Source: Promethearchaeota archaeon (GTDB taxonomy: Archaea; Asgardarchaeota; Lokiarchaeia; Sigyniarchaeales; SOKP01). From it: a DNA stretch of 36,628 nt. Of this stretch, positions 1,404 through 22,212 are shown piece after piece (position 1 is the first letter of the stretch; every line of letters begins with the position of its first letter). The notes beneath the pieces were generated by a model, which ran no database searches, had not been told where the DNA came from, and worked only from the letters and a program-made list of their open reading frames with translations. Position numbers and translations under genes: made by a program. Where the stretch lies: NCBI GenBank assembly GCA_011364925.1, contig RDOA01000008.1, positions 1-36,628 on the forward strand. The letters run 5' to 3'.

Positions 1404-1535
1404 CCGTGTGAGCGAGACGAGCGCACCCGTAGAAGACGGGTTTGGTGAGGTGGGGGTGTACGTGCTAAAGGCTTGAATGTGTCGAGGTGGATGATATTCG
1501 TTTCGAGATTGAAAGAAGGAATGCGTGTGACAAAG
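1404..1535 (+). repeat. Intergenic repeat family, copy 1 (GC-rich module plus tail)
   Basis: Bases 1404-1465 match 6887-6949 almost base for base. This GC-rich module contains a perfect hairpin, ACCCGT-AGAAG-ACGGGT. It is followed directly by AAAGGCTTGAATGTGT and a TTTCGAGATTGAAAG tail typical of the family, but the central core seen in the 5.0 and 7.0 kb copies is absent, so this copy has an internal deletion. The tail runs straight into a TPR gene remnant. It occupies most of the 435-base gap between the two flanking genes; the rest (1303-1403 and 1607-1737) is AT-rich. Confidence 0.75.
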
Positions 1536-1606
1536 TTATTGAAATTAACCCGAAGTACGAAAAAGCATTGGAATTAAGAGAAAAACTACTCAAAAATCGG
1601 ATTTAA
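1469..1606 (+). pseudogene. TPR gene remnant (C-terminal fragment)
   Basis: The frame ending in TAA at 1604-1606 encodes VIEINPKYEKALELREKLL and then KNRI, an unmistakable last TPR helix pair. It resembles the end of the 735-residue TPR protein just downstream. The frame is open back to 1469, but everything before about 1530 is repeat sequence, so only about 25 residues of TPR coding sequence remain. There is no start codon that would make a sensible protein. I read it as the 3' end of a lost TPR gene, cut or replaced by the repeat. Confidence 0.6.
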
Positions 1607-1683
1607 GATTATTTGAAGGTTTACTTGTTTTACAATACCGGTGAGAGCAAATCTTTTGAGCAACAATTATAACTGGAATTAGG

Positions 1684-1696
1684 TTATATAAATAAT
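1684..1696 (+). promoter_or_regulatory. TATA-box promoter for the beta-helix/TPR gene
   Basis: GTTATATAAATAATA is a good archaeal TATA element about 50 bases before the ATG at 1738. Transcription would start near 1712-1718, giving a leader of about 20-25 bases. Confidence 0.45.
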
Positions 1697-1737
1697 AAGA
1701 GCAAAAAATTTGACAATTTAGGAATCAGAAGATCAAG

Positions 1738-3945
1738 ATGCAAGAAATTTTTAATAAAACTACACCTAAAGTTCAAACTGAGAAGTTTAAAGAAAAAGAT
1801 TTGGTTAACTTATTTGAATACCACAAAGTTTCGGGCTCTGGAGTTCAGACAGATCCATACATAATTGAAAGTAGTGATGTTTTTCCTAAGGTTGATATAA
1901 TAGCAATTAAAAAATCAAATCTTTATATTCAATTTAGGAATCACGATTTAAGATCAATTAAATTTAAAAGATCATCAAATATAACAATTAAAAATTGTAA
2001 TTCTTCGAATCTGCAACTTCTTAATTGTTCTGAAGTAAAAATTTTCGATTCCACTTTCGATTTGCTAGAGATAAATAATTCCGTCAAAATTTCTATCCAT
2101 AATTCCAAGATTTCTTATCTGAAACTATTCAATTCCTTTCTAAACGAATTTGATAATTGTTCAATTAAAAGAATAGATAAACACCATAGCCCTGATAACA
2201 CCTTAAATATAGAAGGACAACTGGAAGATAAAGATAGAAAAAGTAATATATTCCAAAATAATGTCCCCTCGATAATAATCCTGTTTTTAGTATTACTTGT
2301 TTGTGGAGATATTCTTTTTTTTTCGTTCATAACGTACACAGTAACCCCCTATACTTTAATAATCATATCGATAATAACAGCTTCTATTATAAGTTTCATG
2401 GTTATTTCTGTTAAGGAAGCAATAAATTTACAAAAAAAGCTGAAAAAATATTATAACGGAAACATAGATTTGGAGTTTAATAATGGTAAAATTATCCTCG
2501 GTTGTGGATTAATAATATTAGGTTTAGTTTTAGCAAATTTATCAATTTATATTCTTTACACTGATCCCTTATTATGGTTACAAACCGAAATTACAACGAT
2601 TTATCTTCTCTCTTTAATCACAATTGCTTCTGTTATTATAACCATCGGTATAAACTCTATATTAAGAAATATGCGTTCTTTTAGAGATCGTTTTGTTAAA
2701 AAGAAAAGTCCGGTTTATCCTCTATTTCTACTCTATAACATCTTTTATGCTCTCATTTTGAGTTTTATGTATATAAGTGCTTTCCTTTTTAATTTAAATG
2801 ATGCTTTTTTAATTATCGCTCAGTTGCTACTCGCTTATCTTGTGATAAATTTTATCATCGCAGTATTTACAAAATTTAAACTTTCTAAATCTAAAGAATC
2901 TTCGGGGGCAACAAGATCTATCCTTGGGATATTCTTAGTGGGATCAGGAGGCTTTACTTTCCCTTTACTAAATTCTCTTCTCCCTGTTTACATCTATTAC
3001 CTTGGTTTGCTTAATTTCCCTCAAATTGCTATTTACTATTTCTTACTCATGTGTTCATCAGTTATTCTAGCTCTCTTCGGAATAATTTCCTTCCCTAAAA
3101 CTTCAAAATTTTTATCTGCTGTTCAATATAGCAAAAAGGAAAAGTATACTAAATCAATCAAATCCTTTCGATCTGCATTACGAACTGAACCATATAACGA
3201 AATTGGATTGTATAATTTAGGAATGACATATTACAAGAATGAGGAATATGCTAAATCAGTTGAAACTCTAAAGAAAGTTTTGACAATAAACCAAAACTCG
3301 ATACGTACCTTGATCGGTTTAGGATACGCTTTCACTGAGTTAGGAGATTTTGAATCTGCTATTAATTCTTGCGAAAAAGCGATCCATCTAATTAAAAATC
3401 CAGTTATATCAGTCTCAACTAAACTAAGCGATATAATTAAACAAACTTTCGCTCAACCAATTAAGGAGGAATCAGCGTGGCAAGCTTTAAGCTATGTATA
3501 TTCAGTTCAAAACAATTACGAGAAAGTAGTGGAAACAGCGAAGAAGGCGTTAAAGTTAAATCCTAGATATAAAGAAGCGTTGCTCTCTCTTGCATATGGT
3601 TATACTTATTTAGGTGAATATGATAAAGCAATTGAAGCTTGTAATAGTGCTCTAGATTTAGATTCTCGTTTTGGTTATACTTGGCATCACCTTGGAAGAG
3701 CTTATCACTTAAAAGGTGACCTAGACTTAGCATTTCAGATGTTTGAAAAAGCTGTTAAATTGTCTCCTAACGAACATAGAATTCGATTAAATCTTGCTAA
3801 ATTATTCTTAGATAAAAAAGAGTATTCTAGAGCCCTCGAAGAAATTGACATAGCTCTAAAACTTAAGCCAAATTTCCAAGATGCTATTGAGGTTAGAGAA
3901 CAAATTCTAACATTGATAAATGAAGACGACAATGTAAATAATTAA
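1738..3945 (+). CDS. Beta-helix / multi-pass membrane / TPR protein
   Basis: 735 residues in three parts. Residues about 45-140 are short Asn- and Ser-rich repeats (SSNITIKNCNSSNLQLLNC) of the right-handed parallel beta-helix type found in surface carbohydrate-binding or carbohydrate-cleaving proteins. Residues about 175-455 hold roughly eight hydrophobic segments. Residues about 460-725 hold about seven TPRs, for example YDKAIEACNSALDLDSRFGY. There is no N-terminal signal peptide, so which side of the membrane each end faces is uncertain. The order suggests a receptor- or scaffold-like protein joining a beta-helix to a TPR platform. I know of no characterised protein with this arrangement. 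ATG 1738 is preceded by a TATA box and lacks a strong ribosome-binding site. Confidence 0.85.
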   Translation: MQEIFNKTTPKVQTEKFKEKDLVNLFEYHKVSGSGVQTDPYIIESSDVFPKVDIIAIKKSNLYIQFRNHDLRSIKFKRSSNITIKNCNSSNLQLLNCSEVKIFDSTFDLLEINNSVKISIHNSKISYLKLFNSFLNEFDNCSIKRIDKHHSPDNTLNIEGQLEDKDRKSNIFQNNVPSIIILFLVLLVCGDILFFSFITYTVTPYTLIIISIITASIISFMVISVKEAINLQKKLKKYYNGNIDLEFNNGKIILGCGLIILGLVLANLSIYILYTDPLLWLQTEITTIYLLSLITIASVIITIGINSILRNMRSFRDRFVKKKSPVYPLFLLYNIFYALILSFMYISAFLFNLNDAFLIIAQLLLAYLVINFIIAVFTKFKLSKSKESSGATRSILGIFLVGSGGFTFPLLNSLLPVYIYYLGLLNFPQIAIYYFLLMCSSVILALFGIISFPKTSKFLSAVQYSKKEKYTKSIKSFRSALRTEPYNEIGLYNLGMTYYKNEEYAKSVETLKKVLTINQNSIRTLIGLGYAFTELGDFESAINSCEKAIHLIKNPVISVSTKLSDIIKQTFAQPIKEESAWQALSYVYSVQNNYEKVVETAKKALKLNPRYKEALLSLAYGYTYLGEYDKAIEACNSALDLDSRFGYTWHHLGRAYHLKGDLDLAFQMFEKAVKLSPNEHRIRLNLAKLFLDKKEYSRALEEIDIALKLKPNFQDAIEVREQILTLINEDDNVNN

Positions 3946-3953
3946 TGTAATTT

Positions 3954-4105
3954 ATCGGGCAAAGTATTCAGCCTACCATTCTCAAACGCGCGAGTGTGTG
4001 GCACTCGAAAGAGGAGTTCGAGGTTCAGGCTTAGGGTGAGAGAGGTTTGTGTAAGTTTTAGACGATAAACATCTCGAGATTGAAATGATGAGGGGGTGAG
4101 TTCCT
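3954..4105 (+). repeat. Intergenic repeat family, copy 2 (core plus diverged tail)
   Basis: Begins nine bases after the stop of the preceding gene. It carries the core with the perfect hairpin CGAGTG-TGTGG-CACTCG, then an overlapping alternative hairpin CTCGAA-AGAGGAG-TTCGAG. The GACGATA and CTCGAGATTGAAA tail motifs follow, but the final GTGTTCCGGA box is degraded. The core matches the 5.0 kb and 7.0 kb copies nearly base for base. Confidence 0.8.
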
Positions 4106-4118
4106 GAATGGGGGTTTG

Positions 4119-4877
4119 CTAATTCCAAATCTCATACCAAATAGCCATAAGTAGAAGCGGAGCAAAAAAACCTATAAGGGCTCCCCAGCCTATAAATTCA
4201 GGATTGATCGCCCAGCCTATCAACAATCCAATAAAACAAGTCACAAAGGATACAACAAGAAAAACGATTAAATTGCTTCCTGTTGAGGATATTTTCACTT
4301 GATCTGATTCTTGCTCCTTTCTATATACAAGTTTAAAGTCAGTGTTATCCGCGATTTGATATAGCTTTGGGTCTATATTTTTTTGATTCCTTTGTTCTTC
4401 GGTCATCTTGCGCAGTTTTTTCTTTTTTTTAATGACTTTAGAAAAATCAGAGTAGATGGGATTTTTTCCGAAGGCCATCGTTCTAAGCCAACGCTTATTG
4501 TCAAAGCTTTCAATCTCGTTAATTTGACATTTATATAAGTCGATCCATGCTAAATTTACAAGAGCATCGAGTCCTTTGAGTGTATGAATTGGATTTTTGT
4601 TGAGGACCAGGATTATCAAGTGCGTGAGATTTTCGAGATTTTTAATCTCGCTAATAGAATTATTAGCGAGTATTAGAACTTTTAGATTCTGTAGTGCTTC
4701 TAAACCTTCAATTTCAGATATTTGGTTATTGCTAAGGTTTAACACTTCCAGATTTTGTAAATCTTCGAGTCCCTCTATCGATGAGATTTGCGTAATTTTT
4801 TTCCCGGAAAGATTGAGGGTTAGTTGACCTTTTCTTCTTTTTGTTTTATACGTTTTATTTTGATAAATTACGGACAT
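4119..4877 (-). CDS. LRR protein with C-terminal membrane anchor
   Basis: 252 residues. Residues about 18-135 are five or six 22-residue SDS22-type leucine-rich repeats, for example LQNLEVLNLSNNQISEIEG, capped by a region with NPIYSDF. A conserved basic stretch follows (KKKKKLRKMTEEQRNQK), then two hydrophobic segments at about 203-250 that should anchor it in the membrane with the LRRs in the cytoplasm. LRRs bind protein partners; the partner is unknown. A close paralogue lies at 14125-14817, and the two diverge only after the basic stretch. A TATA box about 27 bases before the ATG suggests a leaderless mRNA. Confidence 0.85.
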   Translation of the reverse strand: MSVIYQNKTYKTKRRKGQLTLNLSGKKITQISSIEGLEDLQNLEVLNLSNNQISEIEGLEALQNLKVLILANNSISEIKNLENLTHLIILVLNKNPIHTLKGLDALVNLAWIDLYKCQINEIESFDNKRWLRTMAFGKNPIYSDFSKVIKKKKKLRKMTEEQRNQKNIDPKLYQIADNTDFKLVYRKEQESDQVKISSTGSNLIVFLVVSFVTCFIGLLIGWAINPEFIGWGALIGFFAPLLLMAIWYEIWN

Positions 4878-4898
4878 ATATTTTTATCGTCGATATTG

Positions 4899-4909
4899 CA
4901 TATAAAAGT
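4899..4909 (-). promoter_or_regulatory. TATA box of LRR gene, predicts leaderless mRNA
   Basis: On the minus strand the sequence reads ACTTTTATATG, centred about 27 bases before the ATG at 4877, the usual archaeal TATA-to-start distance. The transcript would begin at or next to the start codon. The paralogue at 14817 has the same arrangement. A perfect inverted repeat, CGGAAC/GTTCCG, lies further out at 4973-4994; neither strand has a T run after it, so it is not an obvious terminator. Confidence 0.5.
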
Positions 4910-5031
4910 TTTTCTGCTTTTTACTAGTTAAATCTATGTATTTGCTGGTAAATTCCATTTATAGTTTTTTTACGGAACGCTCATGGAAGTTCCGAATCAT
5001 TATGGCAGTATAGATCTATAAATAGGTACAG

Positions 5032-5214
5032 AGCTTTCGGGCGAGGTATTCAGCCTGCCACTCTCAAACGCGCGAGTGTGTGGCACTCGAAAGAGGAGTT
5101 CGAGGTTCAAACTTAGGGTGATAAAGGCTTGAATGTGTGAGCGGTGGACGATAAGTGTTTCGAAATTGAAAAAGGGAGTGTGTTCCGGATTACTATTTTT
5201 TTTTATAATTTAGT
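5032..5214 (+). repeat. Intergenic repeat family, copy 3 (near-complete core and tail)
   Basis: The clearest core-plus-tail copy. It has CTTTCGGGCGAGGTATTC, the core with hairpin CGAGTG-TGTGG-CACTCG, AGGGTGATAAAGGCTTGAAT, GACGATA, TTTCGAAATTGAAAAAGGG, GTGTGTTCCGGAT and a closing run of nine T. From the core through the tail it is almost identical to the 6.9-7.1 kb copy. The rest of the 458-base gap holds the divergent LRR promoter and AT-rich spacer. Confidence 0.85.
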
Positions 5215-5335
5215 GAAGGTTAATAATTTAGCGTTCTAATTTTATATTGATTAAGTGGCATAAAGTAGGTTTATTTAGAGGTGCATTTACATATTTAAGA
5301 AATCCCTTGGGTGGTGGCTTATCTTTGTAGGGATC

Positions 5336-5653
5336 ATGTTGTTAATCATAAGTAGCCTAATTTACGACCTATTAATATTTGTTTGGGAGATTTTTATAGA
5401 ATTTTATTGGGTTGTAATTTTGTTATCTGGGGTGGGTATTGGTAGTCTGGTTATAGGTGGGATAAAGCTGCAATATAACGCACCAAGCTGGATTGTGTTA
5501 ATCGGTGTAATACTAATTTTTATTTCGTTAATTTTAGCATCGCTTTTTATGAGTTTAGGAGGTATTTTATTGAGTTATGTATCGATACCGATGATACTTG
5601 TTGTTATAGGGCTTGTATGTATAGTAGTGGCAGGATTAATCAGAGAAAAATGA
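5336..5653 (+). CDS. Small multi-pass membrane protein
   Basis: 105 residues, almost entirely hydrophobic, with three to four predicted membrane helices (for example WVVILLSGVGIGSLVIGG) and a short basic C-terminus, GLIREK. The frame is open upstream to 5279 and encodes KKSLGWWLIFVGI just before the ATG, which would extend the first helix nicely, so the true start may be a non-ATG codon a little upstream. Family not recognised. It lies between two copies of the intergenic repeat and belongs to a run of small membrane-protein genes on this strand. Confidence 0.6.
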   Translation: MLLIISSLIYDLLIFVWEIFIEFYWVVILLSGVGIGSLVIGGIKLQYNAPSWIVLIGVILIFISLILASLFMSLGGILLSYVSIPMILVVIGLVCIVVAGLIREK

Positions 5654-5667
5654 ATTCTAGTTTAAAT

Positions 5668-5750
5668 TAGTGAGGGTTTGTGTAAGTTTTGACGATACAG
5701 TTTCGAGATTGAATGTGGAGCGTTGTGTTCCGGAACTTTATTCTCTTTCA
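5668..5750 (+). repeat. Intergenic repeat family, copy 4 (5'-truncated)
   Basis: Starts about 15 bases after a stop codon with AGTGAGGGTTTGTGTAAG, then GACGATA, TTTCGAGATTGAA and TTGTGTTCCGGAA before a T-rich end. It lacks the core hairpin region. The GGTTTGTGTAAGTTTT piece matches copy 2 rather than copy 3. Confidence 0.75.
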
Positions 5751-5841
5751 TTTTATATGTACCAATTAGTAATCAAAGCAAAATTATTTATTTCTAGATT
5801 GGTTAATATTATCTGAAATTTGTAGAGGAAGTGATGATTCA

Positions 5842-6309
5842 ATGATTTTGAGTGGAATCATTGGCACGATACTCTGGATTAGGTCTAGGCGTTGGTTCAA
5901 AGGCTATAAATCTCCATATCGGTTGTTAATTAGAATAATAATCCAGTTATGTATAGTTGGGCTAATTTCCATACTTTCGGCTACCATAGTCTTTTCTATT
6001 CCGCGTTCTTATGGAGATTATACGATATTTCTACCGTTATCTTATCCTTTCTTGGTGGCTTGGAATATCGATGGGTTGCTTCCTGTGTGGCCTCCTTATC
6101 AATATTATTCCATATCTGTATTTTTTATTCCAATTAAAGGGGGATTATTGAACTCAGAATATGGTTCATTTTCTGCTATCCTAGGGGAAATATTTTTCCA
6201 AAGTATGCCGCTTTTTCTGCTAACGAATATGGTCTTAACAGGGATTCTCCTTCTTCTAAGCGAATTACGGATTTTTCGTTTTAATATTAGTTCTAAATCT
6301 ATTCTATAA
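5842..6309 (+). CDS. Four-helix membrane protein, tandem paralogue 1
   Basis: 155 residues. It has a short N-terminal helix, a conserved basic loop (RSRRWFKGYK), a second helix (IQLCIVGLISILSATIV), a non-cytoplasmic loop of about 60 residues with LPLSYP and YYSISV, and a C-terminal helix pair ending LLLLSELRIF. The next gene is a tandem copy: the first 50 residues are almost identical while the middle loop differs. Function not recognised. GAGGAAGTGAT upstream resembles a ribosome-binding site for ATG 5842. Confidence 0.7.
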   Translation: MILSGIIGTILWIRSRRWFKGYKSPYRLLIRIIIQLCIVGLISILSATIVFSIPRSYGDYTIFLPLSYPFLVAWNIDGLLPVWPPYQYYSISVFFIPIKGGLLNSEYGSFSAILGEIFFQSMPLFLLTNMVLTGILLLLSELRIFRFNISSKSIL

Positions 6310-6345
6310 GTAAACAAAATTTTAAAAAAGGAAATGTATTAAAAA

Positions 6346-6786
6346 ATGATTTTATGTGGAATCTTGGGCACAATAATTTGGATTAGGTCGAGGCGCTGGT
6401 TCAAAGGTTATAAATATCTGTATCGGTTATTAATCAGAATAATAATCCAGTTATGTATAGTTGGGCTGATTTCTATACTTTCCGCTACCATCGTCTCTCC
6501 TCCGCGTTTATATGGTGAAATCTCAATTTTTTTACCCTTATCTTATCCAGTATTGCTACAATGGGGTATTTCTGGATATATGGTGTACCCTCCTATTCAT
6601 TATTACACAATAAGCGTGTTAGGTATTGATTTTACAGGTGGGGCGTTAGAATTTGGTGCTTCCGCTTACATTCAAGGGCAAATTTTTATGTATAGTATAC
6701 CGTTATTACTATTACTCAATCTGGTCTTTACAGGAGTTCTACTTCTTCTTAGTGAATTATGGAAGGTTTTTTTTTCTAAGAAGTAG
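6346..6786 (+). CDS. Four-helix membrane protein, tandem paralogue 2
   Basis: 146 residues, starting 36 bases after the stop of its twin, with AAGGAAATG as a possible ribosome-binding site. The basic loop RSRRWFKGYK and the helix IQLCIVGLISILSATIV are identical to the twin. The exposed loop keeps LPLSYP but is otherwise rewritten, and the C-terminal helix pair ends LLLLSELWKVF. The two are probably co-transcribed. The conserved N-terminal half and variable loop suggest duplication followed by change in the exposed face. Confidence 0.7.
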   Translation: MILCGILGTIIWIRSRRWFKGYKYLYRLLIRIIIQLCIVGLISILSATIVSPPRLYGEISIFLPLSYPVLLQWGISGYMVYPPIHYYTISVLGIDFTGGALEFGASAYIQGQIFMYSIPLLLLLNLVFTGVLLLLSELWKVFFSKK

Positions 6787-6860
6787 TTTAGTTTCTGAGC
6801 GTAAAAGAGTAAATTAATGAACTCCTGATAAATGAAGGTGCAGACATTATTCTCTTGATA

Positions 6861-7136
6861 AGTGCGAGCGAATGTGGTGAGGTGAACCGTGGGAGCGAGA
6901 CGAGCGCACCCGTAGAAGACGGGTTTGGTGAGGTGGGGGTGTAAGTGCCGAACTTTCGGGCGAGGTATCCAGCCTGCCACTCTCAAACGCGCGAGTGTGT
7001 GGCACTCGAAAGAGGAGTTCGAGGTTCAGGCTTAGGGTGATAAAGGCTTGAATGTATGAGCGGTTGACGATATAATGATTCGAGATTGAGAGGAGGGAGT
7101 GTGTTCCGGAGTTTCTACTCCATCTTCTTTTTTATT
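6861..7136 (+). repeat. Intergenic repeat family, copy 5 (longest copy)
   Basis: The fullest copy, about 270 bases. The GC-rich 5' module (hairpin ACCCGT-AGAAG-ACGGGT at about 6910-6926) is followed by CGAACTTTCGGGCGAGG, the core hairpin CGAGTG-TGTGG-CACTCG, and the tail with GACGATA, TTCGAGATTGAG and GGGAGTGTGTTCCGGA. A terminator-like stem and a T run close it. It stands out as a GC-rich island in an AT-rich region. Most of the 445-base gap from 6787 to 7231 is this element. Confidence 0.85.
7108..7136 (+). terminator. Stem-loop plus T-rich tract closing repeat copy 5
   Basis: GGAGT-TTCT-ACTCC forms a perfect 5-bp stem, followed by ATCTTCTTTTTTATT. Archaeal transcription can end at such T tracts. 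The same stem with a TTTT loop closes the copy at 13.67 kb, while other copies have only the T run. Confidence 0.45.
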
Positions 7137-7231
7137 AAGCAATTTTATTTACTAGGGGTAATTTACTATGTAAAGTTTTAATTTCATATTTTCACAGAAC
7201 ATTCAAAATGTAGAATCAAGAGGGAGGAGAG

Positions 7232-7402
7232 ATGAGTGAGGAAGAGATGGATAAGGTTATAAGGCTGCTTATTGACGAAGTTGCTAAGTTAAAGGACGAG
7301 CATGCCAAATGGAAAGTTATAATCGAAATAATATTTTTAGTTTCGGTTTCGAGTCTGATAATTTCTATTGTCGTATGGCTTGATTTTTTAGGAATAATAT
7401 GA
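7232..7402 (+). CDS. 56-residue coiled-coil, tail-anchored membrane protein
   Basis: A short gene with a strong ribosome-binding site (AGGGAGGAGAG directly before the ATG). The first 30 residues are a charged amphipathic helix (MSEEEMDKVIRLLIDEVAKL). One membrane helix follows at about 34-54, ending at the stop. This is the layout of a tail-anchored protein with a cytoplasmic helix, perhaps a small subunit for one of the neighbouring membrane proteins. Family not recognised. A repeat copy begins just after the stop. Confidence 0.6.
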   Translation: MSEEEMDKVIRLLIDEVAKLKDEHAKWKVIIEIIFLVSVSSLIISIVVWLDFLGII

Positions 7403-7412
7403 GAAACTCAGT

Positions 7413-7478
7413 TGGCAGACGATATTAGTTTCGAGATTGAAAAAGGGAGTGTATTCCGGAATTTACTTTTTTTTACTA
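7413..7478 (+). repeat. Intergenic repeat family, copy 6 (tail only)
   Basis: Starts about ten bases after a stop codon: GACGATATTAGTTTCGAGAT, TGAAAAAGGGAGTGTATTCC, GGAATTTAC and a T run. Only the 3' tail of the family is present. Confidence 0.8.
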
Positions 7479-7544
7479 ATGGATTGATCCAAAAGAGTGA
7501 AAGAGACAGTTTTAACCACCAATACATTTTTTGTACAAAACTGT

Positions 7545-7556
7545 AATTTTATATAG
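7545..7556 (+). promoter_or_regulatory. TATA box of receiver-LRR gene
   Basis: AATTTTATATAG lies about 32 bases before the GTG at 7583, which puts the transcript start within a few bases of the start codon. This supports GTG 7583 on a near-leaderless mRNA. Confidence 0.45.
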
Positions 7557-7582
7557 TCAAACTATTACCATATTATTGAATT

Positions 7583-14116: not shown

Positions 14117-14124
14117 CAAACTAG

Positions 14125-14817: not shown

Positions 14818-14840
14818 ATTAAATTTTTATATAATAATAC

Positions 14841-14849
14841 TATATAAAG
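14841..14849 (-). promoter_or_regulatory. TATA box of second LRR gene, predicts leaderless mRNA
   Basis: The minus strand reads CTTTATATA, centred 28 bases before the ATG at 14817. The first LRR paralogue has the same spacing. Confidence 0.5.
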
Positions 14850-15102
14850 GTTTTCGTGATTTTTACCAGTAAAAAAGAGCGAATATTACCAATATAACTC
14901 CGAACTTTTAAATAGGAGTCTGATCAGAGATCTTCTTTATAGTTAGTGGATTCCTGTATAACCTGTATAAAGGAAAATTTTAAAGCGTGAATAAGCCCTA
15001 ATTTTTAATCCAATTTTTTTCATAACTTACTCTAAGATTATGCAAGCCAAAACACTCTTTTTTGATAACTTATTTAAGAATTACCACTTTAGATTGAATA
15101 AA
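14850..15102. other. AT-rich intergenic spacer
   Basis: Part of the 409-base gap between the minus-strand LRR and flavodoxin genes. I see no convincing gene. A short inverted repeat (ACTCC/GGAGT at about 14897-14920) is present. The end of the gap holds a weak repeat copy. Confidence 0.4.
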
Positions 15103-15160
15103 GCATGTGTGTATGCGTGTCAGGCGTTTGGTTCGAAATCGAAAAACTATTCCGGAATAT
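15103..15160 (+). repeat. Intergenic repeat family, weak copy 11
   Basis: GCATGTGTGTATGCGTGTCA, GGCGTTTGGTTCGAAATCGA and CTATTCCGGAAT share the TTCGAAATTGA and TTCCGGA landmarks of the tail in the right order, but the spacing and intervening bases are diverged. Confidence 0.4.
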
Positions 15161-15226
15161 AATCAATATAATTTTAAAGTACCCAGTCGTATAGGCACTG
15201 AGAAATTACTCATTATTTATATATTT

Positions 15227-15685
15227 TTAAAGATTTTCAACAATTTTTTTGGCAAAAGCCTTGCATTTTTCAAGTTCTCCATCAATGAGAGGTCCTTCTA
15301 TTCCTTTGACGGCAACTTGTAATCCATTCATGATTTTCTCTAAGTTTGGATTTTTTTCAATTTGCTTTTCCATTTTTTTTACTGCTCTTCTCATAGGACC
15401 GCCAGTATTTATTCCATCTCCACTATGCGTATCAAAAACCACTATTTTTGTACCCGCATCGACATCGAGAGAAGAAATAAACTTCTTAATACTCTTTGCT
15501 TGACTACTCGCATATGTAGGGGAGCCTATCACCAGTGCCTCATAATCCTTAATACGCTCGCTCTCCACAACATCGACTTTCATTACCGTGACGTCATTGC
15601 CCGCTTCTTTAATTACATCTCCCATAGTTTCAGCAGCTTTTTTAGTATTCCCATATTTAGTTTCATACACAATAAGCACTTTCAT
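15227..15685 (-). CDS. Flavodoxin-domain protein
   Basis: 152 residues with the flavodoxin fold: VLIVYETKYGNTKKAAE gives the FMN-phosphate loop, ALVIGSPTYASSQAKSIKKF the second flavin loop, and KIVVFDTHSGDG the third. It is of the length expected for a one-domain electron carrier. It would bind FMN and pass single electrons between redox enzymes in the cytoplasm. GAGGAAG about six bases before the ATG is a ribosome-binding site, with a possible TATA element (TTTATAC in minus reading) around 15731-15738. A second flavodoxin-like gene lies at 22238-22726. Confidence 0.88.
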   Translation of the reverse strand: MKVLIVYETKYGNTKKAAETMGDVIKEAGNDVTVMKVDVVESERIKDYEALVIGSPTYASSQAKSIKKFISSLDVDAGTKIVVFDTHSGDGINTGGPMRRAVKKMEKQIEKNPNLEKIMNGLQVAVKGIEGPLIDGELEKCKAFAKKIVENL

Positions 15686-15916
15686 AATTCTTCCTCTTTA
15701 TAGTTTTTATTACGATCAAATTCTTTTTGTATAAATTAGTCATTTTTTACTATAAATATTTTTTTCCTTATTTCTAAGATTCCATCATGGAAACCCTTCA
15801 TTGTATTTAGGATTGAATTAGTCATTTGTCTTATCGCCATATGCGTGGTCTACTGGGAATTTTTTGATTTTTGTGAAAATAGATTAAGAGGATGTCTTCC
15901 AAAGATGGAAGTATTC

Positions 15917-16056
15917 GACAAAACTGTCAGCCTATCGCTCTCGAATGAGCAAATCTGTGTCATTCGAAAGAAAAGCCCGAGGTTCAAGCTTAGAGTGCTA
16001 AAGGCTTGGAAGTGTGAGAAGTTGACGATATATTTTTGGTTCGAAGTTGAGTAGAG
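15917..16056 (+). repeat. Intergenic repeat family, copy 12 (diverged full core)
   Basis: Aligns without gaps to copy 3 over about 110 bases (TCAGCCT, CTCTC, CATTCGAAAGA, CGAGGTTCA, CTTAG, TAAAGGCTTG, GTGTGAG, TGACGATA). Roughly a quarter of bases differ, mostly transitions. The strong hairpin here is CGAATGA/TCATTCG, using the same 3' arm as the CACTCG arm of other copies but a shifted 5' arm. The CCGGA tail box is lost. Confidence 0.7.
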
Positions 16057-16365
16057 AGATTGGATTTTATTATATTTACTCCCTCGACATCCCACTAAGA
16101 CCTTCTGTGATTTTCTGGAACAAGATAAGGAAAATTATTTTAACACGGATTTAAAAAGACCTATAAAGAATTGAATATTATCTTATTAAATTATAAAGAT
16201 ATGTTTTAAATTTAACTGAGTTTTAAATTTTCGATTCGCACATTGCGAGTTGTATGCGAAGCATATTCCGATTTTCACTTTGAATAAAAAGTTCAATTCT
16301 TTCTATTTTTAGGTAATCGGATTTATAATAGTAACTTGTACAAAAAACTAAAGAGTAGTAGAAAT
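16057..16365. other. AT-rich spacer before aIF1A with an inverted repeat
   Basis: No gene seen. TTCGCA at 16235-16240 and TGCGAA at 16255-16260 form a perfect 6-bp inverted repeat with a 14-base loop. ATTTATAAT at about 16319-16328 is a plausible TATA box for the aIF1A gene and would give a short leader. Confidence 0.4.
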
Positions 16366-16758
16366 ATGCCAAAGATGAAAAAAAAACAGGTAAAAAGAGG
16401 ACGGAGGAGTTCTACACCTGCTCCCACTCCGACAATCTCAAGAGTAAAAATGCCATATAGAAAAAATGGAGAAATGTTTGCGCGGGTGGTTGATATTTAT
16501 GGTCAAGAGCGGATGGGCGTGTATTGTGAAGATGGTAAACACCGTCGTGGAAGAGTCCGAGGAAAAATTAAAAAAAGAGTTTGGATAAGAAAAGGAGATT
16601 TAGTAATAATTAATCCATGGGATTTTGAAACAACAGTTGATGGTGAATCTGAGAAATGCGAAATATCTTGGAGATATTTACGCCATGAAGTCTCTTATTT
16701 AGAACGAAATAATAGAATTCCTAAATCTTTAGATATTAATAACATTCCAGTCTTCTAA
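16366..16758 (+). CDS. eif1A: Archaeal translation initiation factor 1A (aIF1A)
   Basis: 130 residues from ATG 16366. The OB fold of eIF1A/aIF1A is clear: MPYRKNGEMFARVVDIYGQE, VYCEDGKHRRGRVRGKIKKR, VWIRKGDLVIINPWDFE, ISWRYLRHEVSYLERNN. The factor binds the A site of the small ribosomal subunit and helps start-codon selection. The N-terminus has a basic extension of about 30 residues (KKKQVKRGRRSSTPAPTPT) beyond what is usual in archaea, and a short DGESEKCE insert follows PWDFETTV. A TTG at 16336 is in frame, but the ATG gives the family-typical MPK start. Confidence 0.92.
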   Translation: MPKMKKKQVKRGRRSSTPAPTPTISRVKMPYRKNGEMFARVVDIYGQERMGVYCEDGKHRRGRVRGKIKKRVWIRKGDLVIINPWDFETTVDGESEKCEISWRYLRHEVSYLERNNRIPKSLDINNIPVF

Positions 16759-16840
16759 AAATACCATTTTGAACTATATGAAAAGATAAGATTCGATCCT
16801 CTATTCTAATTTATTTTTTGTTCCAACTTCATGGGGATTT

Positions 16841-16955
16841 GCACTCGAGAATTAATGTGTGTGCGTCATTCGAAAGAGGAATTCGAGGTTTAGGCTTATC
16901 ATGGTAGGGATTTATGAGAAAGTTGGCGATACGAGTGCATTTAAGGATATTTAAG
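16841..16955 (+). repeat. Intergenic repeat family, copy 13 (diverged core)
   Basis: GCACTCGAGAATTAATGTGT, GTGCGTCATTCGAAAGAGG, AATTCGAGGTTTAGGCTTA, then GGGATTTATGAGAAAGTTGG and CGATACGAGT. The TTCGAA-AGAGGAA-TTCGAG hairpin of the core is kept with one wobble pair. Begins about 80 bases after the aIF1A stop. Confidence 0.65.
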
Positions 16956-17003
16956 TTGGCAAATAAAATATAGGAAAAGCATTTAATTATAAGAAGAAAC
17001 TAA

Positions 17004-17360
17004 TTGAAGCTTATGGAAGGGAAATATATTAGTCTCGTAACCTACAAGAAAAATGGGGATTCTAGAGCTACTCCAGTGTGGTTCGTGGAAGATGCTGAAA
17101 AACTCTATTTCGTAACAACTCAAGGAAGATATAAATTTAAACGAATAAAGAATAATCCAAATGTTAAAGTTGCACCTGCGAGCATGCGAGGCAAACCTAA
17201 AACCGAATATCTCGATGGAACAGCTCGAGTTCTCTCAGAGGATGAATTTATTCCGATCATCGCGTTGTTTAAAAAAAAATATCGCACATTCAGTTTAATG
17301 TTTAAAACGGACCGAGAGGGAGAAAAGAAACCATTTTTCATCGAAATTACCTTGAAATAA
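17004..17360 (+). CDS. PPOX-fold F420/flavin-dependent oxidoreductase family protein
   Basis: 118 residues with the split-barrel fold of the pyridoxamine-phosphate-oxidase superfamily: YISLVTYKKNGDSRATPVWF, KLYFVTTQGRYKFKRIKNNP, VKVAPASMRGKP and TEYLDGTARVLSEDE match the class often annotated as PPOX-class F420-dependent enzymes. Such proteins bind FMN or F420 as dimers; the substrate is unknown. The annotated start is TTG at 17004, just after a stop codon in frame; ATG at 17013 (MEGKYIS) is equally possible. The N-terminal helix common in relatives is missing or very short. Confidence 0.8.
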   Translation: MKLMEGKYISLVTYKKNGDSRATPVWFVEDAEKLYFVTTQGRYKFKRIKNNPNVKVAPASMRGKPKTEYLDGTARVLSEDEFIPIIALFKKKYRTFSLMFKTDREGEKKPFFIEITLK

Positions 17361-17436
17361 GCCTAGAAAATAATTAGAAGGGACCATATTATTTACGGTT
17401 TCGTTTTAGGCTCTATTGTAATCAAAAGGATTGCAC

Positions 17437-17535
17437 TTGCCAGCGAGAGTTTACAACAATCAAAAGAGAAGCTCTCAGACTTAGTGTAATGAGGGCTTTA
17501 ACATGGAAGCCGTCGACGATAAGTCTTTCGATTAA
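17437..17535 (+). repeat. Intergenic repeat family, copy 14 (strongly diverged)
   Basis: Keeps landmarks in order: CTTGCCAGCGAGAG, CAAAAGAGAAGCTCTCAGAC, TTAGTGTAATGAGGGCTTTA, GTCGACGATAAGTCTTTCGA. Its hairpin is now GAGAG/CTCTC. Begins about 75 bases after the preceding stop. Confidence 0.5.
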
Positions 17536-17586
17536 TAACGAAAATTTCATTAATCTTTTTATTGGTATTTCTCTTTTACTTTTATT

Positions 17587-18252
17587 GTGAATTGGAAAAA
17601 GAAAGTTTTGATAATACTAATTAGTGTTCTCGCGTTGGGAATAATTCTAACTCCTATAGTTAACAATTTTATTGTAATAAATTTTCAAATTTATTATATT
17701 ATAGATTACGATATAGAGGCACAGGATAGAGAGGAGATCATAAGTAGAGTAGAGACATTTAATTATAGCTCATATCTGAATCATATCCCCTGGAGTCACG
17801 ATTTATATAAAAGCTACATTGATGGGGATTATGTGATGTATTTGAAAAATAGCATTGAAAGGGACAATGGATTTCATTGGGCACTTGGGTATGAGCATTA
17901 TCTTAGATATTCATTTACGGCAAGTAATCGTTCCAGTTTGTATTTGACATATAATAATAATACGATCTTTGGCGTGGCAGATCAAGCAAACACCACCCTT
18001 TTATCTATTGATGATTATTTTTGGGACTATGTGGCGTTGTATTTAAATTTCACATGTTTATCGTATGTATATAGCAACAATAGCACGGTGTTATTGAAAA
18101 ACACGATTATTATCCATTTGAAGTTAGAATACGGTTATTTCTGTGGAAGTTTATGTGGGTTGTGGCATGATATTAATCAATATCTAGTTTTAAGTAATTC
18201 TTTAGATGTGATCGTGATTTTTATCTATTCTCTTTTTCCATCAGTTTCTTAA
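17587..18252 (+). CDS. Membrane-anchored surface protein, unknown
   Basis: 221 residues from a GTG. The N-terminus MNWKKKVLIILISVLALGII is a signal anchor; the remainder is rich in Tyr, Asn and Ser with several N-x-S/T sites (for example NNNTIF, NNSTVL), as in exported archaeal surface proteins. The C-terminal part has GYFCGSLCGLWHDINQYLVL, with two Cys that could form a disulfide, and a weakly hydrophobic end (VIVIFIYSLFPSVS). Family not recognised. It is followed 174 bases later by a second membrane protein on the same strand. Confidence 0.6.
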   Translation: MNWKKKVLIILISVLALGIILTPIVNNFIVINFQIYYIIDYDIEAQDREEIISRVETFNYSSYLNHIPWSHDLYKSYIDGDYVMYLKNSIERDNGFHWALGYEHYLRYSFTASNRSSLYLTYNNNTIFGVADQANTTLLSIDDYFWDYVALYLNFTCLSYVYSNNSTVLLKNTIIIHLKLEYGYFCGSLCGLWHDINQYLVLSNSLDVIVIFIYSLFPSVS

Positions 18253-18426
18253 AGCGATGAATATTATAAGACGATAGAAACTCTAAATTATAATTTAGAA
18301 AGATAGGACGAATTATGAGATAAAAACAAGAATATCTATGGGTATAAAAATACTTAATTTTGAATAGTTTAAAATATCACTTTAACTTATTTATTCCTTG
18401 AAATCAATTGTTGAAGAGGTTGTTAT

Positions 18427-18981
18427 ATGACCCAGAACGAGATTAAAACAGTGAGCTTGCTTGGGCTTAAAATAAATAGTAAAATCGCCGTAATTCTCTT
18501 TTACATAATTTTTCCATCAATGTTAAATTTATTCCCAATGCTGATCTATTATGGATTATCCTTTATTGAATACCCTCCCTTAGATTTATTTGCAAATCCT
18601 ATGTACCTCCTAGCTATAACGCTTTATATCGTGATACCACTTCTCTTAATTCCTCTTTTGATCTATATCTTGGTTGTGTGTATTTTGGCTCGGAAAATTT
18701 CTCGAGCTCAAGAAGTAGATAAGGTGCGCTGGTTCTGTTTTCGTTTAGACAATATTTCTCTCATCGTCCTTTTTGTATTATCTATCGTCAATCTTTTTTT
18801 CGACATTCAAGCATTATTTAGCTATATAGGTAATTTAATCACCTTTATTGGATTCTCACCTCCTCCACAAACCATACTTATTCAGATCTATACCTCGATG
18901 ATAATCATTTTATTTATGATGGGATTTTACATCTATACCTTGATTGTATGTGCGATGAATCGAAGGTTATTAAGGCAATAA
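18427..18981 (+). CDS. Four-helix membrane protein
   Basis: 184 residues with four clear membrane segments (about 17-40, 58-88, 107-130 and 152-178), for example LYIVIPLLLIPLLIYILVVC, separated by short polar loops including ARKISRAQEVDKVRWFCFRL. Both ends should be cytoplasmic. GAAGAGGTTG upstream of the ATG is a plausible ribosome-binding site. Family not recognised. Confidence 0.65.
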   Translation: MTQNEIKTVSLLGLKINSKIAVILFYIIFPSMLNLFPMLIYYGLSFIEYPPLDLFANPMYLLAITLYIVIPLLLIPLLIYILVVCILARKISRAQEVDKVRWFCFRLDNISLIVLFVLSIVNLFFDIQALFSYIGNLITFIGFSPPPQTILIQIYTSMIIILFMMGFYIYTLIVCAMNRRLLRQ

Positions 18982-19019
18982 ACTCTTTTGATAATCTTTT
19001 TTTTGCCTTTTTTGAGCAA

Positions 19020-19075
19020 ATGAGGCTTAGAGTTTTAAGGGTTTGTGTAGTAGTTAGGCGATAGAAGATTCGATA
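19020..19075 (+). repeat. Intergenic repeat family, weak copy 15
   Basis: TGAGGCTTAGAGTTTTAAGG, GTTTGTGTAGTAGTTAGGCG and ATAGAAGATTCGATATAAA match GGCTTAGGGTG, GGTTTGTGTAAG, GGCGATA and TTCGA landmarks of better copies. It begins about 40 bases after a stop. Confidence 0.45.
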
Positions 19076-19181
19076 TAAAAATTCTAATTTTTAAACATTC
19101 TAAAAAACTTCTATAAGAAAAAATCATAACTTTTAATAATCTCGTTCAAAATTCCTGAACAAACAACAGAATCAAGTTGGA

Positions 19182-20033
19182 TTATACCGTGTTATAGCCA
19201 TCATTTGGTTGATACGCTCTAAAATAATCAATCTTAAATGTTTTTGGATAGGGAACTTTTGGATCGTATTGACCTGTCCAAGCCCCTTCGAATCGATGTT
19301 CAAAAATACTAAGTAATAATTGCATCGAGTAATGAGGGGACTGATTAATCGTACGGATTTTTTTATTATCAAGATAAAAATCTAAACATGATGGTTTCCA
19401 TTCTAATCCATAAATATGATATTGAGAAGTGTCGATATTAAAATAATCTTCATAGAATTCATCTCGTATCTGTGGATCACCCCAAGGATGAACCCCGTAT
19501 CGAATGCCTGACGACTTAGAACTTGTATGAGAGCCTACTAACTCAAATATTGCGATTTCTGACGATTTTTTGGGAGAATCTTCATAACCTATCATCCATA
19601 AAGCAACATGATTAGCACTCGTTTTAAGACCCTTTGCTCTGAGTTCAAAATATCCGTATTGTGGAGTATAATTTTGAATATTTTCCTGTTCTTCTCTAAC
19701 CACCAAAGAATCGCTAAATCTGTGTTGACCTAATTTGCTTCCGAGAGGACCTGCAAATTCTCCCGTTTGAATAGAAGAGCATCTCACCTCTCCATCAAAT
19801 TCAGGGCACCATGGCTGTTGTTCTTTTGTGATTTGAAGCACTAAATTTCCGCTCTCAAAATAATAATTTGCTTTTGATTGTTCTCTGGAACTCCAATGAG
19901 GTAAGTAATATGGAATCCAATTATTATTATCAAGAATTGAACCCTCAAATTCATCATTGAACACCAGAGTATAACCTGATCTTTCCAGCGGGTTGGCCGG
20001 AAAATCTCCAAGAGATTGATTTTCATAATTCAT
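19182..20033 (-). CDS. GH16-like beta-glucanase-fold protein with altered catalytic motif
   Basis: 283 residues. The concanavalin-like fold of glycoside hydrolase family 16 shows in YTLVFNDEFEGSILDNNNW, YGYFELRAKG, HVALWMIGY, YHIYGLEWKPSCLDFYLDNK and FKIDYFRAY. The catalytic box, normally ExDxxE, reads E159-I-A161-I-F-E164: nucleophile and acid/base Glu are present but the middle Asp is Ala. There is no signal peptide, odd for an enzyme of polysaccharide breakdown. It may be a binding protein or act on an internal glycan. GAGGAATC before the ATG is a ribosome-binding site. Confidence 0.85.
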   Translation of the reverse strand: MNYENQSLGDFPANPLERSGYTLVFNDEFEGSILDNNNWIPYYLPHWSSREQSKANYYFESGNLVLQITKEQQPWCPEFDGEVRCSSIQTGEFAGPLGSKLGQHRFSDSLVVREEQENIQNYTPQYGYFELRAKGLKTSANHVALWMIGYEDSPKKSSEIAIFELVGSHTSSKSSGIRYGVHPWGDPQIRDEFYEDYFNIDTSQYHIYGLEWKPSCLDFYLDNKKIRTINQSPHYSMQLLLSIFEHRFEGAWTGQYDPKVPYPKTFKIDYFRAYQPNDGYNTV

Positions 20034-20097
20034 TTTTTTAGATTCCTCAGAAATTCTCTTTTTATTGATGTATGATTTTTAAAAGTCATTATAAAAA

Positions 20098-20964
20098 TTA
20101 TAACATATCAGAAAACAGACTTTTTCTTATACTTTTTCCCGTTTTAGTTGCTGCGATTCCTCCTTTTCCCGTCTCTTTTAATTCATATGGTAATTTACGA
20201 CCAACTTTCATCATAGCATCCACAACTTCATCTGCTGGGATAATGGATGTAACACCTGATAAAGCCATTTCAGCAGCTAAAAATGCGTTAACCACACCTA
20301 TAGCATTCCTTTTAATGCAGGGTGAAATGACTAAACCGGCAACTGGATCACAAACAAGGCCTAATAGATTTTTTAATGTTATTGCAATCGCGTTGTCTAT
20401 CTGAAGATGCGTCCCCCCTGCCATATATGTTATAGCCGCCGCTGCCATTGCAGATGCAACTCCAATTTCAGCTTGGCACCCTCCTTCACTTCCCGAAAGC
20501 ATTGCGTTATTTCCTATAATTGCTCCTATAGCTGCAGCGACGATTAAAGCATTTAATACTTCATCGTCCGACTTATTAAGGATTTCTTTCGCTTTAAAAA
20601 GAACAGCAGGCAGGGTTCCAGAAGAACCTGCTGTAGGACAAGCAACAATTAATCCCATCCCACTATTGTATTCGCCGATAGCCATTGCCCAGCCAACTGC
20701 TTCTTTTAAATTATTTCCGCAAAAAATTCCAGGTGAAAGCATTTTTTTTGCCTGATGGCTTGCTTCTTTGATAGGTAATTCAATATCACTTGTAAGGGCT
20801 TTTTCAAGGGACTGTTTCATGATATTTAGCGACTTATTAAGTTTTTCAATTATAAACTTTTTAGGAACATTATGAAATTCCATTTCATCGTTTATTATTA
20901 ATTCATGTAATGGAATCCCTAGAGTTTTAGATTCATTGAGCAGAATAGAAATTGATTCAAACAT
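20098..20964 (-). CDS. sdaAA: L-serine dehydratase, alpha subunit (iron-sulfur)
   Basis: 288 residues. It converts L-serine to pyruvate and ammonia with an oxygen-sensitive [4Fe-4S] cluster, acting with the beta subunit. Family motifs: VACPTAGSSGTLPA at about 107-120, SGSEGGCQAEIGVASAMAAA, and LGLVCDPVAGLVISPC; Cys109, Cys163, Cys205 and Cys216 are candidate cluster ligands. It overlaps the upstream beta-subunit gene by eight bases (its ATG precedes the beta stop), so the two are translationally coupled. Two-subunit forms are common in Gram-positive bacteria and scattered in archaea. Confidence 0.94.
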   Translation of the reverse strand: MFESISILLNESKTLGIPLHELIINDEMEFHNVPKKFIIEKLNKSLNIMKQSLEKALTSDIELPIKEASHQAKKMLSPGIFCGNNLKEAVGWAMAIGEYNSGMGLIVACPTAGSSGTLPAVLFKAKEILNKSDDEVLNALIVAAAIGAIIGNNAMLSGSEGGCQAEIGVASAMAAAAITYMAGGTHLQIDNAIAITLKNLLGLVCDPVAGLVISPCIKRNAIGVVNAFLAAEMALSGVTSIIPADEVVDAMMKVGRKLPYELKETGKGGIAATKTGKSIRKSLFSDML

Positions 20965-21622
20965 TAATTACCCTCACCCAAATTATTTCTGAATTATCTT
21001 TCAATGCATCAATTACATCTTCTGGTATCGCTGTATCTGCTTCAAGCCACGTTAAAGCTATCTTTTTTTTCAAATTTCTGGAGATTTTCATCGATCCTAT
21101 ATTTAATTTAAATTTTTGAAGCGTGTTTGCTATATTCACAAGTGCTCCAATCCTATCGTGATTTAATATCACTAATGTGTTCGGTTCTCCCCCAAATCCT
21201 GCTTCTAACCCATCAACTTCTTTGATTATTATGTTACCCCCTCCAATTGAGGAACCAATTACATTCATTTTTTCTGTTCCATCAAACATCTCTATGCTAA
21301 CTGAATTTGGATGATAATCTGCTCCTAAATCCACTACTTCAAACGAATAATCAAGGCCTTCTTTTTCAGCAATTTCAAATGCGTGTTTGATCATATCATC
21401 TTCAGGTGTAAATCCCAGTAATCCAGCTAAAATTGCGATATCCGTACCATGACCTTTATATGTCTCTGCAAATGAACCATGAAGCCCTATTTTTACAGAT
21501 TTAGGTTTTTTTCCAAATAATAACCGTGCGACATACGCAATTTGACACGCTCCAGCAGTATGACTTGAGCTTGGACCAACCATGATATGGCCAATAACAT
21601 CAAAGATAGAAGTGTATTTCAT
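20957..21622 (-). CDS. sdaAB: L-serine dehydratase, beta subunit with ACT domain
   Basis: 221 residues. The N-terminal domain carries the family signature HIMVGPSSSHTAGACQIAYV near residue 12. The C-terminal part from about 145 is an ACT domain (NTLVILNHDRIGALVNIANT), the usual serine-sensing module. First gene of a two-gene operon with the alpha subunit. No strong ribosome-binding site is seen before the ATG. Confidence 0.94.
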   Translation of the reverse strand: MKYTSIFDVIGHIMVGPSSSHTAGACQIAYVARLLFGKKPKSVKIGLHGSFAETYKGHGTDIAILAGLLGFTPEDDMIKHAFEIAEKEGLDYSFEVVDLGADYHPNSVSIEMFDGTEKMNVIGSSIGGGNIIIKEVDGLEAGFGGEPNTLVILNHDRIGALVNIANTLQKFKLNIGSMKISRNLKKKIALTWLEADTAIPEDVIDALKDNSEIIWVRVINV

Positions 21623-21756
21623 AACTTATTTCAACTTAATTTAATATATAAATATTTACGATTCTTGCTTGTACTTAGTTCGAGATCTATTCATTGAAAC
21701 AACATTTTTATTAACGGTTTACTTTTTACTGATCTAAGGCAAAGTTAAATTAAAAC

Positions 21757-22137
21757 TTGTTACGCGTGAATTATAAAAGCAACCCCCAATATTCATTTCC
21801 AAGATACAAAATTTTATTGATTTCTAAGGATAAACCAACCATCCAGTTGATGAACAGCTATTTTGATAGCAAGCAGTTTAGTGTTTATAATGCGTTAAGT
21901 TTTGCTCAAGCTCGGGAGGAATTAAAACGCTATATCCCCCTTTTAATCTTATTGGACAGGAGTCTTCCAGAGGATAACCGGAACATACTCATGGAACAAT
22001 TGAAACTCGATAAAAGGTTGAGTAAAGTTCCGATTAAAATCTTTGTAAGAAAGGAGTTTGAAAGAAAGAGCTTTTTTAAGGTTAGAAAAGAAGCTCAATC
22101 CTACAAAGAAGATATTGTTGATTATTACAAATTTTAA
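21757..22137 (+). CDS. Stand-alone response-regulator receiver domain
   Basis: 126 residues from TTG (GTG at 21766 is an alternative). YKILLISKDKPTIQLMNSYF starts the receiver fold; the phospho-acceptor Asp67 is kept in LILLDRSLPED, unlike the receiver-LRR fusion. The conserved Thr/Ser and the C-terminal Lys-Pro are poorly preserved (KIFVRKEFE, SYKEDI), so signalling may be weak or unusual. No output domain and no kinase gene nearby. Confidence 0.75.
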   Translation: MLRVNYKSNPQYSFPRYKILLISKDKPTIQLMNSYFDSKQFSVYNALSFAQAREELKRYIPLLILLDRSLPEDNRNILMEQLKLDKRLSKVPIKIFVRKEFERKSFFKVRKEAQSYKEDIVDYYKF

Positions 22138-22175
22138 ATCTTCTTGACCATCACTTCTAAAAAAATTAGATAATA

Positions 22176-22212
22176 TTTGCGTAGAGATATTCTAAGATTG
22201 AAAGGATTTTTT
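22176..22212 (+). repeat. Possible last copy of the intergenic repeat (tail remnant)
   Basis: GCGTAGAGATATTCTAAGAT, TGAAAGG and a T run lie 40 bases after a stop, at the position and in the order expected for the tail, but only AGATTGAAAG is convincing. Confidence 0.3.

What the first reader, a model, noticed from the sequence alone, without database searches (positions are those of the whole stretch)
1404..22212. A same-strand repeat family with a shared 3' tail and nested 5' ends
At least a dozen copies occur between genes. The better ones end in the same order: GACGATA, TTTCGAGATTGAAA, GGGAGTGTGTTCCGGA, T run. Copies at 7.4, 9.8 and 11.8 kb have only the tail; 5.7 and 13.6 kb reach further 5'; 4.0 and 5.0 kb include the core; 6.9 kb also has the GC-rich module. 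All are on the + strand, and I saw no reverse copy even beside minus-strand genes. A shared 3' end with 5' truncation is what retrotransposed elements show. A 3'-UTR cassette copied by recombination would also fit. I do not know a described archaeal element like this.
Basis: partly seen in the sequence, partly recalled or inferred. Interest (0 to 1): 0.78.

Follow-up and report, generated by a model that had tools for sequence, protein, structure and literature searches.

The report
Gene array built on 23S rRNA ends
In a Lokiarchaeon, a 35-kb stretch of extra genes sits just after where the 23S ribosomal RNA gene belongs, and its genes are separated by leftover copies of that rRNA gene's end, as if DNA had been captured there again and again.

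Summary
The repeat family is real, but it is not an unknown retroelement. The "GC-rich module + core" is the last ~120 nt of archaeal 23S rRNA (Rfam RF02540, window 6870-7006, E 2e-15, model end 2987/2987). The "tail" is that gene's 3' trailer and conserved terminator (GGGAGTGTGTTCCGGA, T run). About 15 partial copies lie at 1.4-19.1 kb, all in 23S orientation; none lie elsewhere in the 3.9-Mb genome. Neighbouring genes point either way.

In array-free relatives the 23S gene is followed within 1-3 kb by a conserved gene block. In this contig that block starts at ~36.8 kb, so the whole window is an island between 23S (off the contig end) and its normal flank. Copies decay away from the 23S side. 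Related Lokiarchaeota carry different arrays at the same place; other genera carry copies of their own 23S end. The genome has no RVT_1-type reverse transcriptase and one Xer-like recombinase.

Best reading: a gene-accretion hotspot at the 23S 3' end, each insertion leaving a partial 23S end, like tandem tRNA-gene/SCC islands or integron cassettes. DNA recombination is most likely; the enzyme is unknown. Retrotransposition is not supported. I found no published description, but only open-access papers were searched.

The parts
1..36628 (+). Island between the (unassembled) 23S gene and its conserved downstream gene block; the block itself begins at contig position ~36,820, just outside the window
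   Evidence: orthologues of the genes directly downstream of 23S in G009/G001/G011/G015/G020 start at L073:820 = C101:36819; contig C101 starts at window base 1
1404..1537 (+). Copy 1: 23S 3' part (profile 4-68) fused by internal deletion to trailer (154-219); terminator lost at GTGTG, followed by the 3' end of a TPR-like ORF
3953..4130 (+). Copy 2: 23S end (from profile 71) + trailer + box 2
5023..5207 (+). Copy 3: 23S end (from profile 59) + trailer + box 2 + T run
5658..5754 (+). Copy 4: trailer + box 2
6884..7137 (+). Copy 5: the fullest one; last ~120 nt of 23S rRNA (RF02540 match 6870-7006) + full trailer + terminator
   Evidence: (55.3 bits, E 2.1e-15, model 2856-2987/2987)
7413..7474 (+). 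Copy 6: distal trailer + terminator
9837..9896 (+). Copy 7: distal trailer + terminator
11757..11814 (+). Copy 8: distal trailer + terminator
13597..13694 (+). Copy 9: trailer + terminator; its first 25 nt encode the last codons and stop of the ORF 11957-13621
14057..14112 (+). Copy 10 (weak): trailer remnant broken at GGAGTGT
15089..15167 (+). Copy 11 (weak): trailer remnant + TTCCGGA
15927..16074 (+). Copy 12: 23S end (from profile 86) + trailer, terminator decayed
16859..16931 (+). Copy 13: 23S end/trailer fragment
17441..17531 (+). Copy 14: 23S end/trailer fragment
19023..19073 (+). Copy 15 (weak): trailer fragment
4119..4877 (-). Cargo gene, LRR protein, directly after copy 2 (71% aa paralogue at 14125-14817)
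5336..5653 (+). Cargo gene, 105 aa membrane protein; homologous gene + tail module in the array of another Lokiarchaeon (G017)
13823..14032 (+). Cargo gene, 69 aa zinc-ribbon-like protein; homologues between tails in G017 (two, adjacent)
16336..16758 (+). eIF1A gene inside the array, as in G008 (87% aa)

Best explanation
The repeats are partial copies of the end of the host's 23S rRNA gene (up to the last ~120 nt plus the 3' trailer and terminator). They are junction scars of repeated DNA insertions at a hotspot immediately downstream of the 23S gene. Each event places a short piece of DNA, usually one gene in either orientation, between the gene's terminator and a 5'-truncated copy of the same 23S end. 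The new proximal copy remains the working 23S 3' end and terminator. Repetition at the same place yields a same-strand, polar array in which older copies decay with distance. Shown: identity of the repeats with 23S, fixed orientation, confinement to one contig, conserved flank, different arrays in close relatives, and independent examples from other genera's own 23S ends. Inferred: that insertion works by DNA-level recombination between the 23S end/trailer carried on incoming DNA and the resident one (general homologous recombination or a recombinase acting in trans, perhaps helped by a break at the terminator or by a homing endonuclease). The enzyme is not identified.
For: Rfam LSU_rRNA_archaea match ending at model position 2987/2987; alignment with real 23S ends and trailers of relatives. 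All own copies on one contig, one strand; copies on contigs anchored by 23S or its flank all point the same way. The conserved block after 23S in array-free relatives lies beyond the array here and in G013, G002, G017, G004. G013 and G002 share ~94% identical flanks but unrelated arrays. Copy quality falls with distance (Spearman rho -0.55, p 0.035, n 15). Genes beside copies are on both strands (26 + / 23 -), with a median 24 nt from a + gene's stop to the copy. In G026 and G034 (a different genus) the copy matches that genome's own trailer. Homologous gene+tail module in two species whose left neighbours differ, the switch lying within box 2. In G034 the first 98 nt of 23S and copy are identical and the next ~97 nt differ at 14 sites plus gaps, which hints at recombination rather than simple duplication.
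Against: The own 23S gene is not assembled, so adjacency here is inferred from synteny. No recombinase is encoded among the window proteins scanned. 5' ends are spread rather than at one crossover point. A few copies in other genomes (G022:C141, G016:C240, G004:C91, G020:C67) are on contigs without a visible 23S. The polarity correlation is modest, and terminator function may bias which parts survive. G010 has an older copy nearer to 23S than a younger one, so insertion is not strictly ordered or carries older copies with it.
Confidence: 0.78

Rival explanations
1. Copying by a polymerase: the 23S transcript's 3' end (or the displaced DNA strand) is copied from the terminator towards the 5' side, stops at structured regions, and is fixed at a break beside the terminator together with captured DNA. 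This would be an RNA- or template-switch-mediated process acting in cis rather than a dispersing retroelement.
For: Fixed 3' side and nested 5' ends; no copy seen to run more than ~120 nt into 23S, and three copies start within ~4 nt of each other at GAACCG, just 3' of the GC-rich expansion in G010 23S; deletions between microhomologies inside copies (1404, G022).
Against: No RVT_1 protein in the own genome; nothing dispersed; some modules keep their own tail across species, which points to exchange of DNA units.
Confidence: 0.15
2. Retrotransposed 23S-derived SINE-like element.
For: Shared 3' tail, 5' truncation, one strand.
Against: Confined to one contig and one orientation; no RVT_1; no copies elsewhere in 3.9 Mb; in other genera the copies also follow the local 23S.
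Confidence: 0.03
3. Integron-like cassette system: each module is a gene with its own attC-like tail recombined by an IntI-type recombinase at an attI-like 23S terminator.
For: Gene-tail modules, sites all in one orientation, tail abutting stop codons, switch point within the tail motif; integrons are reported as enriched in Asgard archaea (PMC9668308).
Against: Only one PF00589 protein in the genome, with similar-length homologues in most relatives and hence probably XerA; genes on both strands; tails lack attC hallmarks by eye; tails have variable 5' ends.
Confidence: 0.12
4. Plain local tandem duplication and decay with retention of the 23S terminator as a useful terminator for neighbouring genes, without any insertion process tied to the 23S end.
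For: Local paralogues (4119/14125, 5842/6346); terminator part often the best-kept.
Against: Genes between copies are mostly unrelated; close relatives have entirely different genes there; about half of the upstream genes are on the strand opposite to the terminator.
Confidence: 0.07

Closest known systems
Tandem integration of archaeal/bacterial elements at 3' ends of tRNA or protein genes (archaeal tyrosine recombinases, PMC8371274; thaumarchaeal casposons in ef-2, PMC6563490)
   Same: A conserved gene's 3' end is the target; direct repeats derived from that gene; tandem accumulation at one locus
   Different: Target is 23S rRNA; inserts are mostly single genes without a recombinase; repeat length varies
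SCC elements at the 3' end of rlmH/orfX (PMC11767417)
   Same: Insertion at the 3' end of a conserved gene with direct repeats at the junctions
   Different: SCC carries ccr recombinases and short, constant repeats; here 40-250 nt nested repeats and no recombinase
Integrons and CALINs, including those reported in Asgard archaea (PMC9668308)
   Same: Array of gene modules separated by same-orientation sites, each abutting the gene end
   Different: No IntI recognised, sites are rRNA-derived and not evidently attC, genes on both strands
HeimM2 of Ca. Heimdallarchaeum (PMC8813620)
   Same: Asgard insert directly beside an rRNA gene, with an LRR gene and an rRNA-type homing endonuclease; the G034 insert here also holds a LAGLIDADG ORF, and the window holds LRR genes
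   Different: HeimM2 lies between 16S and tRNA-Arg; no array of rRNA-end copies is described in the passages read
SINEs derived from rRNA (from general knowledge)
   Same: rRNA-derived, 5'-truncated copies
   Different: SINEs are dispersed on both strands by a reverse transcriptase; these are local and on one strand

Membership tests
LSU rRNA 3' end (RF02540) | Covariance-model match above the gathering score that includes the 3' end of the molecule | tested here: met
   window 6870-7006, 55.3 bits (cut-off 50), model 2856-2987/2987; shorter copies only by alignment
Retrotransposed SINE-like element | Copies dispersed in the genome in both orientations | tested here: not met
Retrotransposed SINE-like element | Reverse transcriptase available in the genome | tested here: not met
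   no PF00078 match in 3.9 Mb (100% complete)
Retrotransposed SINE-like element | Shared 3' end with 5' truncation | tested here: met
   (proximal copies)
Integron/CALIN | Integron integrase (IntI) | tested here: inconclusive
   a single PF00589 protein of 317 aa with similar-length homologues in most relatives; the IntI-specific domain was not tested
Integron/CALIN | attC sites with conserved core and ssDNA fold | not tested
   no attC detector run; by eye no consistent RYYYAAC/GTTRRRY pair
Integron/CALIN | Array of gene modules with all sites in one orientation | tested here: met
Gene-3'-end integrative island (tRNA/SCC type) | Insertion at the 3' end of a conserved gene with an occupied and an empty state | tested here: met
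   (array-free G009, G006, G001, G011, G015, G020 against arrays in G000, G013, G002, G017, G004); G009 itself has one degenerate copy
Gene-3'-end integrative island (tRNA/SCC type) | Element-encoded recombinase | tested here: not met
   none among 20 window proteins; the single PF00589 of the genome is on another contig
Gene-3'-end integrative island (tRNA/SCC type) | Precise, repeated crossover point | tested here: inconclusive
   5' ends spread; one module switch and several left junctions at box 2/GTGTG
Casposon | Cas1 (casposase) and terminal inverted repeats | tested here: inconclusive
   no Cas1 among the 20 window proteins scanned; terminal inverted repeats not searched for specifically

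The most novel reading that the evidence does not exclude
A recombinase-less gene-capture system in Lokiarchaeota in which the 23S rRNA 3' end and terminator themselves act as the capture site, through copying of the rRNA end or a break at the terminator, so that the ribosomal RNA locus continually accretes single genes in a polar array.
Probability: 0.2. Interest if true: 0.85.

Novelty: new variant of a known kind. Interest (0 to 1): 0.62.

Why it matters
It identifies a specific, recurrent landing site for new genes in archaea closely related to eukaryotes, at one of the most conserved loci of the cell. It turns the question of how Lokiarchaeota acquire genes into one testable at a defined address. 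It also warns that rRNA-adjacent contigs of Asgard MAGs carry rRNA-derived repeats that may break assemblies, since several array contigs start or end at or near them.

Tried and rejected
Rfam at default thresholds over the whole window gave nothing; only a short stretch with permissive filters showed the LSU rRNA match. RF02540 finds no 23S in the own assembly. A supposed second copy in G034 at 4180-4267 was a T-run artefact. A donor-replacement test on G010 (proximal trailer like G009, distal copy like G006) is mosaic and inconclusive. Literature searches for rRNA-3'-end insertion arrays in Asgard archaea found nothing matching; only open-access papers are held.

Full report
What is there. 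Box 2 of the motif (GGGAGTGTGTTCCGGA) occurs seven times with at most three mismatches, all on the + strand, against 0.04 expected by chance. Profile searches give 13 clear copies (about 15 with two weaker ones) between 1404 and 19,073, all on the + strand, and no credible minus-strand copy in 76 kb of this contig. The copy at 1404 has an internal deletion, the distal copies have lost the terminator part, and the match at 22.2 kb is not supported.

What it is. The 'core' and 'GC-rich module' are the 3' end of 23S rRNA. Given a short stretch, Infernal matches window 6870-7006 to LSU_rRNA_archaea at 55.3 bits, E 2.1e-15, model 2856-2987 of 2987. The best hits of the element in related genomes lie at the very end of real 23S genes. 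The alignment continues through the 3' trailer to a conserved GGGAGTGTGTTCC(G/T)GA + T-run terminator present at the real 23S genes of many relatives. The organism is a Lokiarchaeote: matching public records are titled Candidatus Lokiarchaeota.

Where it is. In this genome (3.9 Mb, 112 contigs) every copy is on contig C101, + strand. The own 23S gene is not assembled. In array-free or nearly array-free relatives (G009, G001, G011, G015, G020, G006) the 23S gene is followed within 1-3 kb by a conserved gene block. Here the orthologous block starts at C101:~36,820, in the same order. The window therefore is an island of at least 35 kb between 23S, which should lie just left of the contig start, and its usual flank; copies are in its 23S-proximal half. 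The same flank follows arrays in G013, G002, G017 and G004. G013 and G002 are ~94% identical in the flank but unrelated in the array, so turnover is fast.

Independent cases. In G026 a Fic-family gene lies between 23S and a copy of G026's own trailer. In G034 a 6.2-kb insert with LAGLIDADG and RNase H ORFs lies between 23S and an 89% copy of its own 23S end; the only strong matches in that genome are at this locus. The process therefore recurs from each lineage's own 23S gene rather than being one inherited element.

Anatomy. Genes next to copies are on either strand (26 + / 23 -), and the stop codon of + genes is a median 24 nt from the next copy, sometimes inside it (window ORF 11957-13621 ends within copy 9). 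Gene modules recur: the 105-aa gene at 5336 and its tail have homologues in G017, with homology starting at GTGTTCCGGATTA of the upstream copy while the left neighbours differ; the zinc-ribbon gene at 13823 has two tail-flanked homologues in G017; the flavodoxin at 15227 occurs in the G013 array in the opposite orientation. eIF1A at 16336 sits inside the array here and in G008. Copy similarity to 23S falls with distance from the 23S side (rho -0.55, p 0.035).

Mechanism. Shown: 23S origin, fixed orientation, hotspot with empty and occupied states, variable cargo, partial copies. Inferred: each event inserts DNA behind the terminator and leaves a truncated 23S end. I favour DNA recombination between a 23S end/trailer on incoming DNA and the resident one, because modules with their own tail exist in different contexts, because G010 carries an older, differently typed copy inside an insert, and because the G034 pair is identical over 98 nt and then differs at 14 sites in ~97 nt, a step that simple duplication plus drift does not explain. 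Candidates for the agent are homologous recombination, the single Xer-like recombinase, or homing-endonuclease-induced breaks; none is demonstrated. The limit of copies at GAACCG, just 3' of a GC-rich expansion of 23S in G010 (by position probably the ES39 region), and microhomology deletions inside copies keep a polymerase-based copying model open.

Why not a retroelement. No dispersion, one orientation, no PF00078 reverse transcriptase in a genome rated 100% complete, and the sequence is rRNA. Only the nested 5' ends remain retro-like.

Known relatives. Functionally it resembles islands stacked at tRNA-gene or rlmH 3' ends and, in array form, integrons; it fails or leaves open their defining recombinase features. 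The nearest published Asgard parallel found is HeimM2, an LRR/homing-endonuclease element beside 16S rRNA (PMC8813620). No paper describing 23S-end arrays was found in the held library.

Limits. MAGs with missing rRNA genes; some copies in other genomes lie on contigs without 23S and may be separate array pieces, second 23S loci, dispersal or binning errors; counts depend on profile thresholds.

Noticed in passing
L043:16420-16995 (-) and 15157-15600 (-) (G034): LAGLIDADG_3 ORF and RNase H ORF inside the insert between 23S and its copied end; a possible driver of insertion in that genus.
   Followed up: partly
window 16336-16758: A translation factor eIF1A gene lies inside the array with rRNA-end copies on both sides, as also in G008; homology of the two loci stops on both sides of the gene.
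   Followed up: partly
L070:6779-6913, L069:1512-1604, L061:3114-3328, L099:1502-1599: Copies on contigs without visible 23S (one contig has uS4/uS11 genes); the G020:C67 copy is not of G020's own trailer type: dispersal, second 23S locus or binning error.
   Followed up: no
window 5842-6309 and 6346-6786: Tandem pair of unknown membrane proteins (68% aa identity) with no rRNA-end copy between them.
   Followed up: no
window 25145-26119 and 33888-34853: Two paralogous genes (D2 repeat, 77% DNA identity over 300 nt) in the distal island, both with orthologues at the array/flank border of G013 and G002.
   Followed up: no
L055:2239-2889 (-) and 674-1108 (+): GNAT acetyltransferase and 4HBT thioesterase as array cargo in G017; the acetyltransferase looks bacterial by eye (origin not tested).
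   Followed up: no
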